This document shows positions 3,779 through 8,746 of a stretch of 10,666 nucleotides of DNA, piece by piece. The notes under the pieces were generated by a model. That model did no database searches. It was not told the DNA's origin and saw only the letters and a list, made by a program, of their open reading frames with translations. Position 1 is the stretch's first letter. Every line of letters starts with the position of its first letter. The stretch is taken from positions 1 to 10,666 of the forward strand of contig JAFAWC010000195.1 in NCBI GenBank assembly GCA_019242135.1. Direction: 5' to 3'. Origin of the DNA: Mycobacteriaceae bacterium (GTDB lineage Bacteria > Actinomycetota > Actinomycetes > Mycobacteriales > Mycobacteriaceae). A program made the position numbers and the translations under genes.

Positions 3779-4795
3779 CTAGCCGGCGAGCTGGTTGACG
3801 AGGCCCGCGAACAGCGTGGGCAGCCGTGCCGCGGCCGGCACGATCCGTGCGCGCACCGCCGGGTGAGCGCCGGCCTGCAGTACCGCCGCGGTCAGCGCGC
3901 GGTAGCGGCGAGACATACGGCGCCACTGGCGGTCGTATCCGGCGGGACGGTCCGCGACGACAGAGGAGACCAGGAGCTCGGCGGAACTGAACGCGATGCC
4001 CAGCCCTTCACCGGTCAGCGCATCGACGTAACCCGCTGCGTCACCGACCAACATCACTCGCCCGGCGACACGGCTGCGCACCTTCTGCCGCAGCGGCCCC
4101 GCGGCGCGGTCCGCGCCGTGCTCGTGATCCTGCACCCTGTCCTTGAGCGCTGGGAACGAATCGAGGTGCTCGGTGAAACCCGCGCGACACGAGGTGAGGA
4201 TCGCAATGCCCACACAGTCTTCGGACACCGGGGTGACGTAGGCCTCGGCGTCATCAGACCAGTGCACTTCGACATAATCGCTCCACGGCGTGATCTGGAA
4301 GTGACGGCGAATTCCCCAGCGGCGGAGGCCATTTGACGGCAACGCCAGCCCGAGTGAAGAACGGATCGCAGAGTGCAGGCCGTCGGCCGCCGCCAGGTAT
4401 CGGGCGCGAAACCCGCTGCAGTACACCGACGTTGAATCCTGGCTGACCTCACCGAGCTCGTCGTGCTCCACCCGCACCCCGACCGCAGCCACCGCGTCAG
4501 AAAGTGCGGAGTGCAACGCGGTCCGGCGCACACCGCGTCCGACACCGGATCGGAACCGTGCGGTCGCACGCCGCCGTTCGTCGAGATAGCTGATGCCGTA
4601 GAACGGCCTGCCCGGCGCCTGCACCCCCAGCCGGTTCAGCTGCGCCACCGAATGTGGCATCAACCCTTCACCGCACGCCTTATCGATCGGCCCGCAGCGC
4701 TTTTCGACCACCACGACGTCGAGCCCGGCCGCCGCGCCATACAGCGCGGTGGCGAGTCCGGCCGGGCCTCCGCCGGCGACGAGCAGATCAATCAT
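3779..4795 (-). CDS. FAD-dependent oxidoreductase, geranylgeranyl reductase/monooxygenase type (SrsC-like role)
   Basis: The product has 338 residues and starts with a Rossmann FAD-binding fold: LLVAGGGPAGLATA at 4-17, ending the second strand with VVVVEKR. KACGEGLMP at 39-47 is typical of geranylgeranyl-reductase-like and tailoring monooxygenase flavoproteins. AADGLHSAIR at 136-145 is the DG motif, and VMLVGDAAGYVDALTGEGLG at 247-266 is the GD motif that contacts FAD ribityl. The C-terminal ~60 residues are hydrophobic and basic, possibly for membrane association with a lipid substrate. The start ATG at 4795 overlaps the stop of the methyltransferase gene as ATGA, so translation is coupled. 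As last gene of a type III polyketide synthase operon it probably hydroxylates or oxidises the methylated phenolic lipid to a quinone, as SrsC does in Streptomyces griseus. The exact reaction is inference from context. Confidence 0.85.
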   Translation of the reverse strand: MIDLLVAGGGPAGLATALYGAAAGLDVVVVEKRCGPIDKACGEGLMPHSVAQLNRLGVQAPGRPFYGISYLDERRRATARFRSGVGRGVRRTALHSALSDAVAAVGVRVEHDELGEVSQDSTSVYCSGFRARYLAAADGLHSAIRSSLGLALPSNGLRRWGIRRHFQITPWSDYVEVHWSDDAEAYVTPVSEDCVGIAILTSCRAGFTEHLDSFPALKDRVQDHEHGADRAAGPLRQKVRSRVAGRVMLVGDAAGYVDALTGEGLGIAFSSAELLVSSVVADRPAGYDRQWRRMSRRYRALTAAVLQAGAHPAVRARIVPAAARLPTLFAGLVNQLAG

Positions 4796-6418: not shown

Positions 6419-8746
6419 TCAATGGTCCGACTTCTCTGTGAATTTGCTGACCCGCGGCCGACTTTCGGCCGTGTCGACGGGCCGGTCCGGTGGCGCGGCG
6501 GCGTGGCCGTCGGTGAATCCGAGCCGCTCGTGCAGCCAGACCAACCACGGCGGGGCCCACCAGTTCCATTGACCCATCACATGCATGAACGCGGGCACGA
6601 GAATCATCCGAACCAGCGTGGCGTCGGCAAGCACGGCCAGCGTCAGGCCGAGCCCGAACATCCGCATAAACGACACATGCGCGGCGATCAGCGCCGCGAA
6701 CGAGATGGACATCACCAGCGCGGCGGCGGTGATCACGCGGCCGGTGCGCGCGATGCCGAGGGCGACGCTCTCGTCGTTGTCGACGCGGGTGCGGACCCAG
6801 CCTGACGTCGCGGGCTCGACCGTTCCGGAAGCCAGCCAGAATTCGCGGATCCGGGAAACCAGGAACACCTCGTAGTCCATCGACAATCCGAATGCGATGC
6901 AGAACAGCAGCACCGGCACGTTGGCGACCAGGGTGCCGCTGGGCGTCGTTCCGAACGCGCCGAGATGGCCGTCCTGAAAGATCCACACCATTGCGCCGAA
7001 GGCGGCGGAGAGCGAAAGAATGTTGAGCGCCAACGCTTTCAGTGGCATCACCACACTGCCGGTCAGCAGGAAGAGCAGGACGAACATGATCGCCGCGATG
7101 AGTCCAAGCACCAGCGGCAGCCGCGACGTGATGGCGCGAACGCTGTCGCGATTGGTCTGGGCGGTGCCGGTGATGTCAACCTGACGGGCGCCGGGCGTGG
7201 GCACGGCGTGCAGCCGGTCGAGCTGGGTTTCGGAGCGGTCGGAGAACAGGGGTGTCGCACTGTTGACGGTGAGGAATGCGCTGCCCCGGTCCTGCCCGGC
7301 GGGCGCTGAGGAGGGTCCGACGGGCGCGCCTGCGACGAAAGTGCCCGTGGGGGCGGATACCGCCGTCACGTCGGGCACACGGGAAAGGTCGGCCGCGTAA
7401 CGCTCGATGTCGCTGCCGGTGAGGCCGGTGGCCTCGGGGATGACGAATGTGACCGCGGTCTCGGAATTATTGACAAAGTTGCGGCGCAGTTGGTCGCCGA
7501 CCTGGTGTGCGGAGGCTGACCGGGGCAGTACCCGGTCGTCGGGGAAACCCCACTTGACGCCCAGGAATGGCACACCGAGCAGAATCAGCAGCGCGACGCC
7601 GGCCACCCCGATCGGAATCGCATGCCGGATAACACGTTTGGTCCACCGATACCAGAACTGGCGGTGCACGGGTTTGGGAACGGGCTCAGGCCGTCCCAAC
7701 ATGCGGCGAGCGAGGCGGCGGACGTCGAGCGAATCCAGTCGCGGGCCCAGCAGGACGAGCGCGGCCGGCGTAATCACGATGGCCGCAACGGCGGCGAACG
7801 CGACCGTGGCCACGCCTGCGTAGGCAAAGGACTTCAAAAAGTGCATCGGGAACAGCACCAGCACCGCGGCCGAGAGCGCGACGGTCGTTGCGGAAAACAA
7901 CACCGTGCGGCCCGCCGAAACCATGGTTGTGACGAGTGCTTGCTCGCGGGTGGCGCCGTCGGCCAACTCGTCGCGAAATCGGCTGATCATCAGCAGCGTG
8001 TAGTCGATGGCAAGCGCAAGACCCATGGCGGTGGTGAGGTTGAGCGCAAAGATCGACACATCGGTGGCGAAAGAGATCCCGCGCAGGACGGCCAGCGCGC
8101 ACAGAATCGCCATCCCGCCGACGGCCACCGGCAGCGCCGCGGCCAGCAGGCCACCGAACACCCAGACCAAAATCAGGAAGCTGAGCGGAATGGCGAGCGA
8201 TTCCATCAGCACAAGGTCGTGCTGCGACTGGTCGGTGATCTGGACGTTCACCATGGCGACTCCGCCGGTCTGCACGGTGACGCCGTTACGGTCGTGCGTC
8301 AGCTGAGCCGACAGGTCCCTGGCGTATCGCTGCTGGCTGCTCTCGTCGCCGGTGATGCCTGCGGCGATCAACCCGGCGCTGCGGTCCTTGCTGACAAGCT
8401 CGGCGGCGGCCTGCGGCGGCACCGTCCAGGGTGAGGCGACGGTGGCCACGTGGGGTGAGCGGCGAAGCTGATCGACGATCTCGGTGCCCGCGCTACGGGC
8501 GGCGGCGGTGTCCACGCCCCGGGGGGTGTAGACGACCACCAGCAGCTGCACGTCGCCCCGATGGAACTTCTCCGTCAGGAGCTCAGACGCCCTCGCCGAC
8601 TCGGATGTCGGGTCCTGGAATCCGCTGGCGGACAGGCTCTTGGCAACCGGCAACCCGAAAACGGCTAACCCCAGCGCCAACAGGGCGGCGACCACAATGA
8701 TGCGACGTGGTGCGACGATGGCCAGCCGGGCGATCCTTGGTAGCAC
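6419..8746 (-). CDS. MmpL-family RND transporter (resembles an intact MmpL13)
   Basis: The product has 775 residues in the RND/MMPL layout: an N-terminal helix at 13-33, a periplasmic loop at about 40-180, a block of helices at 183-336, a cytosolic linker, helix 374-396, a second loop to about 540, and helices at 546-722. Both proton-relay Asp-Tyr pairs are present: D248-Y249 in LALAIDYTLLMISRFRDE and D624-Y625 in LSMDYEVFLVSRIREF. The GTG start at 8746 follows GGAAGG at 8759-8754 by seven bases. The size is close to the sum of MmpL13a and MmpL13b, which are split in M. tuberculosis, and far shorter than MmpL3 or MmpL11; the MmpL13 link is from memory of lengths and not certain. There is no MmpL3-like long cytosolic tail. 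As first gene of the polyketide operon, 40 bp before the synthase, it probably moves the phenolic lipid or quinone across the inner membrane, but the substrate is not shown. Confidence 0.9.
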   Translation of the reverse strand: MLPRIARLAIVAPRRIIVVAALLALGLAVFGLPVAKSLSASGFQDPTSESARASELLTEKFHRGDVQLLVVVYTPRGVDTAAARSAGTEIVDQLRRSPHVATVASPWTVPPQAAAELVSKDRSAGLIAAGITGDESSQQRYARDLSAQLTHDRNGVTVQTGGVAMVNVQITDQSQHDLVLMESLAIPLSFLILVWVFGGLLAAALPVAVGGMAILCALAVLRGISFATDVSIFALNLTTAMGLALAIDYTLLMISRFRDELADGATREQALVTTMVSAGRTVLFSATTVALSAAVLVLFPMHFLKSFAYAGVATVAFAAVAAIVITPAALVLLGPRLDSLDVRRLARRMLGRPEPVPKPVHRQFWYRWTKRVIRHAIPIGVAGVALLILLGVPFLGVKWGFPDDRVLPRSASAHQVGDQLRRNFVNNSETAVTFVIPEATGLTGSDIERYAADLSRVPDVTAVSAPTGTFVAGAPVGPSSAPAGQDRGSAFLTVNSATPLFSDRSETQLDRLHAVPTPGARQVDITGTAQTNRDSVRAITSRLPLVLGLIAAIMFVLLFLLTGSVVMPLKALALNILSLSAAFGAMVWIFQDGHLGAFGTTPSGTLVANVPVLLFCIAFGLSMDYEVFLVSRIREFWLASGTVEPATSGWVRTRVDNDESVALGIARTGRVITAAALVMSISFAALIAAHVSFMRMFGLGLTLAVLADATLVRMILVPAFMHVMGQWNWWAPPWLVWLHERLGFTDGHAAAPPDRPVDTAESRPRVSKFTEKSDH

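What the first reader, a model, noticed from the sequence alone, without database searches (positions are those of the whole stretch)
3779..8746. MmpL transporter leading a type III polyketide synthase-methyltransferase-flavoprotein operon
Seen: four minus-strand genes in tight order (gaps of 40 and 15 bp, then an ATGA overlap). Known: the type III synthase, ICMT-type methyltransferase and flavoprotein trio matches srsABC of Streptomyces griseus and the mycobacterial polyketide-quinone pathway. Inferred: placing an MmpL exporter first makes a self-contained make-and-move unit for a methylated phenolic lipid or quinone, so the product may act in the outer envelope or periplasm and not only as an inner-membrane electron carrier. 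I do not know of a described MmpL substrate of this class.
Basis: partly seen in the sequence, partly recalled or inferred. Interest (0 to 1): 0.72.

Follow-up and report, generated by a model that had tools for sequence, protein, structure and literature searches.

The report
Lipid pump joined to quinone-making genes
In many environmental mycobacteria the genes that make a methylated phenolic or quinone lipid travel as one block with a membrane pump gene, and both halves carry the same stress-type start signal, which suggests what an orphan family of mycobacterial lipid pumps may carry.

Summary
On the minus strand, mmpL (8746-6419), a Pks11-like type III polyketide synthase (6378-5317), an ICMT-type methyltransferase (5301-4792) and a geranylgeranyl-reductase-type flavoprotein (4795-3779) follow each other with gaps of 40 and 15 bp and an ATGA overlap. 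The block recurs: mmpL sits directly before such a synthase in 33 of 118 genus genomes, a lower bound. Of 80 named loci, 21 have the full quartet and 56 have the synthase without the other three (48 of the 56 with enough flank).

New here: (1) this MmpL belongs to the MmpL13 group, for which I found no reported substrate; elsewhere a second, pkqABC-type cluster lies beside an MmpL13-group gene. (2) A SigL-type site (TGAAC-N17-CGTG) stands before mmpL and before the synthase, the only two in the window, and is enriched before relatives of both genes. (3) In M. avium paratuberculosis, published arrays show mmpL13 rising with the pkq genes and SigL.

Best reading: a SigL-controlled make-and-move unit; transport is inferred. 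Against: MmpL13-group genes persist where no such synthase was found, and 7 of 32 relatives with the block have no SigL hit.

The parts
6419..8746 (-). mmpL, MmpL13-group RND lipid transporter, 775 aa, GTG start
   Evidence: PF03176, 2.5e-72; aligned to MmpL3 over residues 16-757; the Asp-Tyr pairs at 248/249 and 624/625 align with those of MmpL3; both pairs invariant in 27 rows; tree
5317..6378 (-). type III polyketide synthase, Pks11-like, 353 aa from GTG 6378 (356 aa from GTG 6387)
   Evidence: best solved relative Pks11, E 2.6e-161; Cys, His and Asn motifs GCVAG, SHPGGP, GNLSSAS
4792..5301 (-). ICMT-type membrane methyltransferase, 169 aa (PkqB/SrsB position)
   Evidence: (PF04140, 7e-26)
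3779..4795 (-). FAD-dependent oxidoreductase of the geranylgeranyl-reductase type, 338 aa (PkqC/SrsC position)
8835..8860 (-). SigL-type promoter site TGAAC-N17-CGTG, its first base 114 bp before the mmpL start
   Evidence: (2 exact in the window, 0.14 expected)
6396..6421 (-). second SigL-type site; its TGA is the mmpL stop codon; its first base is 34 bp before GTG 6387 of the synthase
   Evidence: the same 34-35 bp position in 4 other operon and 6 Pks11-like synthase upstreams

Best explanation
This is a make-and-move unit controlled by the redox-sensing sigma factor SigL. [quoted passage not shown] The membrane methyltransferase O-methylates it and the flavoprotein hydroxylates/oxidises it to a methoxy-benzoquinone or hydroquinone lipid. 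The MmpL13-group RND transporter then uses the proton gradient to flip or export this lipid (or a precursor) from the inner leaflet towards the periplasm or outer envelope. Shown here: gene identities, order, conservation, near all-or-none packaging, SigL-type sites before both mmpL and the synthase, and a parallel link of MmpL13-group genes to pkqABC-type clusters. From the literature: chemistry of homologous enzymes and co-induction of mmpL13 with the pkq genes. Inferred: that the MmpL carries the product, in which direction, and that SigL really transcribes this operon.
For: Order conserved: 33 loci in 32 relatives, plus the window's own genome, of 118 have mmpL immediately upstream on the same strand, 30 of the 33 within 122 bp. 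Quartet in 21 of 80 named loci; 22 of 23 named loci with a methyltransferase or flavoprotein have mmpL. Operon MmpLs fall into one clade, 41 of its 43 rows beside a synthase. pkqA-like synthases (53-59% identical) lie divergent to an MmpL13-group gene at 145-166 bp (L101, L108, L132, L135) or at 2.4-7 kb in other loci. SigL-type site exact in 17 of 35 operon-mmpL upstreams, 10 of 21 pkqA-like, 8 of 34 stand-alone mmpL, against 19 of 1462 other genes; 31 of 106 at spacer 17 but 0-3 at each other spacer from 11 to 23. sigL lies 0.7-5.3 kb from these clusters in six fetched loci. Published array: SigL, RslA, mmpL13, pkq trio and pks10 rise together (PMC2806251 section 6).
Against: No biochemical or genetic evidence for transport by any MmpL13 was found. 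Of 13 genus genomes without a synthase hit (E 1e-50), 10 keep an MmpL hit (E 1e-100). Outside the genus, 59 of 141 family-level genomes have an MmpL hit (E 1e-130) but only 3 of 141 a synthase hit (E 1e-60). Two other genera have the trio with no such mmpL in 14 kb (L197, L198), as do mycobacterial loci L099, L100 and L117, so the lipid can evidently be made without a linked MmpL. Operon-clade MmpLs L128 and L173 have no synthase beside them. SigL: 7 of the 32 relatives with the block have no sigL hit at E 1e-50; the exact-site test against sigL presence is not significant (17 of 60 against 0 of 8, p 0.19), and the one-mismatch test (p 0.0006) is not significant once kinship is corrected for.
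Confidence: 0.55

Rival explanations
1. Co-regulated but different cargo: the MmpL moves another envelope lipid or pumps out a toxic redox-active compound, and sits in the block because both parts are needed in the same stress response.
For: MmpL13-group genes exist in 10 of 13 genus genomes with no synthase hit and at their core locus have their own recurrent neighbours (CoA-transferase III, short-chain dehydrogenase, enoyl-CoA hydratase, TetR regulator, small methyltransferase, Sir2).
Against: Does not explain the near all-or-none packaging of mmpL with methyltransferase and flavoprotein behind Pks11-like synthases (22 of 23 named loci), nor linkage to two synthase subfamilies.
Confidence: 0.27
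2. The product is a methylated alkylresorcinol, acylphloroglucinol or pyrone that serves as an envelope or biofilm lipid, not a respiratory quinone; the MmpL still exports it.
For: MMAR_2474, related to Pks11, makes methylated resorcinols and acylphloroglucinols (PMC5916927, abstract and two sections read); the Pks11 chains are named alpha-pyrone synthases.
Against: The flavoprotein is kept in 21 of the 22 named operon loci where the contig reaches past the synthase (L043 lacks it; L055 ends at once), as expected for the oxidation step.
Confidence: 0.14
3. Ordinary neighbours: the adjacency has no functional meaning.
For: By number most related synthases (56 of 80 named loci) lack the mmpL, and operon MmpLs are largely one clade, so much of the recurrence is shared descent.
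Against: Recurrence in 33 of 118 genomes, flanks that differ between lineages, and shared SigL-type sites.
Confidence: 0.04

Closest known systems
pkqABC polyketide quinone cluster of M. smegmatis (MSMEG_0808-0810) and the MMAR_4313 cluster
   Same: Type III synthase, methyltransferase and oxidoreductase in the same order; described as a three-gene operon (PMC9927152 passages; PMC8730385 part 1 of 5)
   Different: Here the synthase is of the Pks11-like subfamily (pkqA-like ones are 53-59% identical to it) and an mmpL leads the block; the word transporter does not occur in PMC9927152. I had no labelled M. smegmatis sequence, so pkqA-like is my label for the 53-59% group with methyltransferase and flavoprotein behind it
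srsABC of Streptomyces griseus
   Same: Same three enzyme types (recalled; not compared by sequence here)
   Different: No MmpL in the recalled description
MmpL13 (Rv1145/Rv1146; MAP2635c)
   Same: Same group by tree, length and gene order: MAP2635c and MAP2642-2644 correspond to mmpL divergent from synthase, methyltransferase, flavoprotein in L103, L106, L113 and others
   Different: The window's MmpL is in a separate operon clade, not the core-locus gene; no direct comparison with a sequence labelled MmpL13
MmpL3, trehalose monomycolate exporter
   Same: Best solved relative, aligned over nearly the whole chain, with both Asp-Tyr pairs
   Different: Far below the MmpL3 equivalog cut-off (390 against 1400 bits); no long C-terminal domain
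SigL regulon (sigL-rslA, pks10-pks7, Rv1139c-Rv1138c, mpt53)
   Same: Sites of the same form before mmpL and synthase; sigL beside the cluster in six fetched loci
   Different: The SigL targets named in the passages I read include no MmpL; mmpL13 rises with them in PMC2806251, whose section 6 does not assign it to SigL

Membership tests
pkqABC/srsABC-type cluster | type III synthase, ICMT-type methyltransferase, FAD oxidoreductase adjacent in this order | tested here: met
pkqABC/srsABC-type cluster | synthase of the pkqA-like subfamily | tested here: not met
   the window synthase groups with Pks11-like and other operon synthases; pkqA-like ones are 53-59% identical
pkqABC/srsABC-type cluster | product is an O-methylated alkylbenzoquinone | not testable with these tools
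   needs LC-MS
Pks11-like type III synthase | catalytic Cys-His-Asn and close similarity to Pks11 | tested here: met
MmpL family, cluster II | MMPL domains and MmpL3-like architecture over the whole chain with the Asp-Tyr pairs | tested here: met
MmpL family, cluster II | substantial cytoplasmic C-terminal domain | tested here: not met
   the MmpL3 alignment ends at residue 757 of 775, so only a short tail is left; reviews state the domain for MmpL3, 11 and 13 (passages)
MmpL13 group | falls with core-locus mmpL13-type genes in the tree | tested here: met
   the operon clade (SH-like support 92) lies inside the mycobacterial groups that hold the core-locus genes (91 and 99; FastTree)
MmpL13 group | direct sequence match to a labelled MmpL13 | not tested
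   identity of the core locus rests on the gene order in PMC2806251 and lengths in PMC2277376
SigL regulon | SigL-type -35/-10 site at fixed spacing before the gene | tested here: met
   the CG-TGN(C/A)AG -10 form is in PMC6372665: site 8860 matches it except at -9, site 6421 matches at -9 but not at -8 and -7; the -35 word TGAACC is recalled
SigL regulon | transcription depends on SigL | tested here: inconclusive
   one-mismatch sites before 39 of 60 mmpL in genomes with a sigL hit, 0 of 8 without (p 0.0006), exact sites 17 of 60 and 0 of 8 (p 0.19); independent pairs along the tree not significant

The most novel reading that the evidence does not exclude
MmpL13-group transporters are the carriers of SigL-controlled type III polyketide quinones, and the lipid works outside the inner leaflet: SigL, released when the thiol switch of RslA is oxidised, makes and exports a quinone that accepts or delivers electrons on the periplasmic or outer-envelope side, alongside Mpt53 and a cytochrome-c-biogenesis-type protein that are induced with it. 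The split of mmpL13 reported for modern tubercle bacilli would then be the decay of an export arm that lost its use.
Probability: 0.15. Interest if true: 0.85.

Novelty: new variant of a known kind. Interest (0 to 1): 0.62.

Why it matters
MmpL proteins place the lipids that make the mycobacterial envelope, but no substrate of MmpL13 turned up in the papers I searched, and one paper notes that mutation of the locus gave no detectable phenotype and that a strain with an uninterrupted gene should be used (PMC2277376, passage). Three lines (operon linkage, divergent linkage to a second synthase subfamily, and shared SigL-type sites with published co-induction) point to one class of cargo and to the conditions under which to look: SigL induction, oxidative stress, biofilm. 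It also offers a reason why alkylresorcinol/quinone lipids could act outside the inner membrane. The test is simple in environmental mycobacteria that carry the four-gene block.

Tried and rejected
Rejected: chance adjacency. Rejected: that the block is special to this window; it is in M. vanbaalenii, M. austroafricanum, M. vaccae, M. chubuense, M. agri, M. iranicum and others. Rejected: that MmpL linkage is a general trait of type III synthases; the two other-genus loci fetched have the trio without mmpL, and 48 of 80 named synthases stand without mmpL, methyltransferase or flavoprotein even with at least 2.3 kb upstream and 1.7 kb downstream to look in. Tried and inconclusive: kinship-corrected test of SigL presence against site presence (6 to 7 independent pairs); sigma-70-type promoter and terminator scan (1 promoter-like site against 0.3 in shuffles, 4 terminator-like against 2.4). 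Weak points: the listings were cut, so genome counts are lower bounds; the named set and the unnamed set overlap in species and must not be added, and related upstreams in the site counts are not independent; trees are FastTree only; the gene caller is a simple one of my own and missed some flavoprotein and methyltransferase genes.
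Full report
WHAT IS THERE. The window is a 10.7-kb stretch of contig C76 of a draft genome (84% complete, 724 contigs). Its nearest named relatives by this operon are mycobacteria. On the minus strand lie mmpL (8746-6419, 775 aa), a type III polyketide synthase (start GTG 6378 or 6387, stop 5317), an ICMT-type methyltransferase (5301-4792) and an FAD oxidoreductase (4795-3779). Domains are clear. This is the only type III synthase hit at E <= 1e-50 in the assembly.

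ENZYMES. The synthase is closest, among solved structures, to Pks11 (E 2.6e-161) and keeps the Cys, His and Asn motifs. A Trp directly before the VSHPGG motif is shared with Pks11. A paper notes a Trp at ArsB position 281 that favours resorcinol over pyrone and is kept in PkqA (PMC9927152, passages); I did not align to ArsB, so that the residues correspond is inferred. The methyltransferase is 57-76% identical to eight chosen relatives, of operon and pkq type. The flavoprotein is 51-75% identical to ten chosen relatives and keeps GxGxxG and the GDAAGY-DALTGEG stretch.

TRANSPORTER. The MmpL aligns with MmpL3 over residues 16-757, and both Asp-Tyr pairs in the two central helices are kept; that these are the proton-relay residues is recalled. 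It scores 390 bits against a 1400-bit cut-off for MmpL3 itself. MmpL4 and MmpL5 match only in part. In a FastTree of 107 MmpL rows the operon MmpLs fall into one clade of 43 rows (SH-like support 92), 41 of them beside a synthase (exceptions L128, L173). This clade lies inside mycobacterial groups that hold genes of a conserved core locus. I identify that core locus as MmpL13 by gene order: PMC2806251 lists MAP2635c (mmpL13) and MAP2642-2644 (chalcone-synthase-like, methyltransferase, oxidoreductase, with Rv1660, Rv1139c and Rv1138c as homologues), and fetched loci such as L103, L106, L107, L113, L114 and L116 show an mmpL divergent from synthase, methyltransferase and (where the contig reaches it) flavoprotein with 5-7 kb between. 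Lengths agree (Rv1145 303 + Rv1146 470 aa; Mb1177 781 aa; PMC2277376). No direct comparison with a labelled MmpL13 was made.

CONSERVATION. In 118 genus genomes (window's own included), 105 have a synthase hit at E <= 1e-50 and 113 an MmpL hit at E <= 1e-100. Pairing 149 listed synthase places with 149 listed mmpL places gives 33 loci in 32 relatives with mmpL immediately upstream of the synthase on the same strand, 30 within 122 bp and three at about 1.65 kb; with the window this is 33 of 118 genomes. Both listings were cut, so these are lower bounds. In the 80 named loci kept from 412 relatives, 23 have mmpL upstream; 21 of these have the full quartet in order; L043 lacks the flavoprotein and L055 ends 51 bp after the synthase; L064 has a flavoprotein but no mmpL; 56 have the synthase alone. 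Of those 56, 48 have at least 2.3 kb upstream and 1.7 kb downstream to look in, and none of the 56 has any of the other three anywhere in the locus at the thresholds used. I call these the Pks10/Pks11-like group (that group's type I neighbours are as described in PMC5916927; not checked here). In the synthase tree bare and operon synthases do not form two clean clades: the smallest branch that holds all 42 operon rows holds 57 bare ones too. The flanks of the quartet are shared within lineages but differ between them.

A SECOND LINK. pkqA-like synthases (53-59% identical to the query) are mostly followed by methyltransferase and flavoprotein. Of 22 such hits in the cut list, 11 have an MmpL13-group gene within 20 kb, divergent in each case. 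Fetched loci add closer cases: mmpL and synthase back to back with 145-166 bp between (L101, L108, L132, L135), and L133 and L134, where mmpL is back to back with the flavoprotein or the methyltransferase although no synthase is there. L085, L094 and L095 carry a pkqA-like synthase and methyltransferase directly in front of the quartet. So two synthase subfamilies are joined to the same transporter group in several geometries.

REGULATION. Only two exact matches to TGAAC-N17-CGTG exist in the window, both on the minus strand, one starting 114 bp before mmpL and one overlapping the mmpL stop before the synthase (0.14 expected). For the second, a start of transcription 10-11 bp after the site would fall only about 7 bp before GTG 6378. 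Before relatives the exact site is found in 17 of 35 operon mmpL, 10 of 21 pkqA-like, 8 of 34 stand-alone mmpL, 2 of 10 nearby mmpL, 5 of 41 operon synthases, 6 of 58 Pks11-like and 0 of 4 back-to-back mmpL, against 19 of 1462 other genes; with one mismatch allowed 23 of 35, 17 of 21, 17 of 34, 6 of 10, 12 of 41, 22 of 58 and 4 of 4 against 113 of 1462 (identical upstreams of one class counted once, background not thinned). Moving the spacer away from 17 abolishes it: 31 of 106 upstreams at 17, 0-3 at each of 11-16 and 18-23 (unnamed loci and window). The form fits SigL: the -10 consensus TGN(C/A)AG preceded by CG, and P-pks10 and P-Rv1139c as characterised SigL promoters, are in PMC6372665 (passages); the -35 word is recalled. 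PMC4821874 warns that SigL, SigE and SigH sites are similar and that consensus sequences predict poorly (passages). Genomes with a sigL hit (E <= 1e-50) have a site (one mismatch allowed) before 39 of 60 mmpL and 28 of 37 synthases, those without before 0 of 8 (p 0.0006) and 1 of 5 (p 0.03); for exact sites 17 of 60 against 0 of 8 (p 0.19) and 16 of 37 against 0 of 5 (p 0.14). Other genes in the two sets: 72 of 807 against 8 of 144. Pairing along the tree, the trend never reverses but is not significant. Seven of the 32 relatives with the block have no sigL hit (G003, G013, G024, G043, G051, G084, G105), so the block can be kept without it. The sigL gene (E 5.9e-86 to the SigL chain) lies 0.7-5.3 kb from the nearest cluster gene in L101, L108, L132, L133, L134 and L135, with an RslA-like stretch nearby in L134; in the window's own genome it is on another contig (C306). 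RslA releases SigL on oxidation (PMC2877774, abstract and passages).

INDEPENDENT EXPRESSION EVIDENCE. In M. avium paratuberculosis treated with a rhodanine, SigL 2.60, RslA 2.50, mmpL13 3.73, synthase 9.00, methyltransferase 7.93, oxidoreductase 4.90 and pks10 2.43 fold rise on day 1 (PMC2806251, section 6 read). The authors link MAP2642-2644 to SigL and do not comment on mmpL13 in that section.

WHAT SPEAKS AGAINST. MmpL hits are kept in 10 of 13 genus genomes without a synthase hit. In the family-level sample, 59 of 141 genomes outside the genus have an MmpL hit at E <= 1e-130, but only 3 of 141 a synthase hit at E <= 1e-60. So the group as a whole cannot be devoted to this cargo; the claim is for the operon clade, and weaker for the core-locus gene. 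The trio without a linked mmpL also exists (L099, L100, L117, L197, L198).

PRINT. In an open-licence library I found no paper that connects an MmpL with a type III polyketide product (of the 41 papers naming MmpL13, 30 were listed and only some opened). Subscription papers, including the original PkQ and SigL papers, were not available. Papers were seen as follows: PMC5916927 abstract and two sections; PMC8730385 first of five parts; PMC2806251 one section and a passage; PMC9927152, PMC10896814, PMC6463170, PMC6372665, PMC13002591, PMC2277376, PMC2877774, PMC4821874, PMC7823733, PMC7421604, PMC10171966 and PMC5974182 passages only.

VERDICT. A real, conserved, probably SigL-controlled four-gene unit: a new variant of the known polyketide-quinone cluster with a built-in MmpL13-group transporter. 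The coupling is well supported by genomics; transport and product location remain inference.

Noticed in passing
window 3342-3782 (+): Only about the first 123 residues of a TIGR03557-type F420-dependent oxidoreductase are present; similarity to longer relatives in the same genome stops at about 3716, some 60 bp from the end of the flavoprotein gene. The block seems to abut a truncated gene, perhaps an insertion or deletion junction.
   Followed up: partly
L085, L094, L095: Two different type III synthases in one run: pkqA-like synthase and methyltransferase directly followed by mmpL-synthase-methyltransferase-flavoprotein, all on one strand.
   Followed up: no
L149, L150, L151: Two genes, one on each strand (about 1.65 kb), lie between mmpL and the synthase; in related loci L145 and L152 the same two gene families lie upstream of mmpL instead.
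   Followed up: no
L101, L108, L132, L133, L134, L135: sigL (two sigL-like genes in L101 and L108) lies near the mmpL/pkq cluster in these rearranged loci.
   Followed up: partly
L134:14379-16136: One open frame joins an RslA-like N-terminal stretch (match to 3hug_B at residues 42-112) to a carotenoid-oxygenase-like protein; fusion, start-codon artefact or frameshift not resolved.
   Followed up: no
window 8878-10665 (+): A permease-like frame (APC type, my reading of the sequence), divergent from mmpL, runs off the window end; it was not found beside the block in the 80 named loci.
   Followed up: no
window 1075-2493 (+): DUF4185 protein, 472 aa.
   Followed up: no
G000:C41 and G000:C573 (other contigs of the window's genome): Two further MmpL13-group pieces reaching contig ends, 70% and 65% identical to the window's MmpL.
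   Followed up: no
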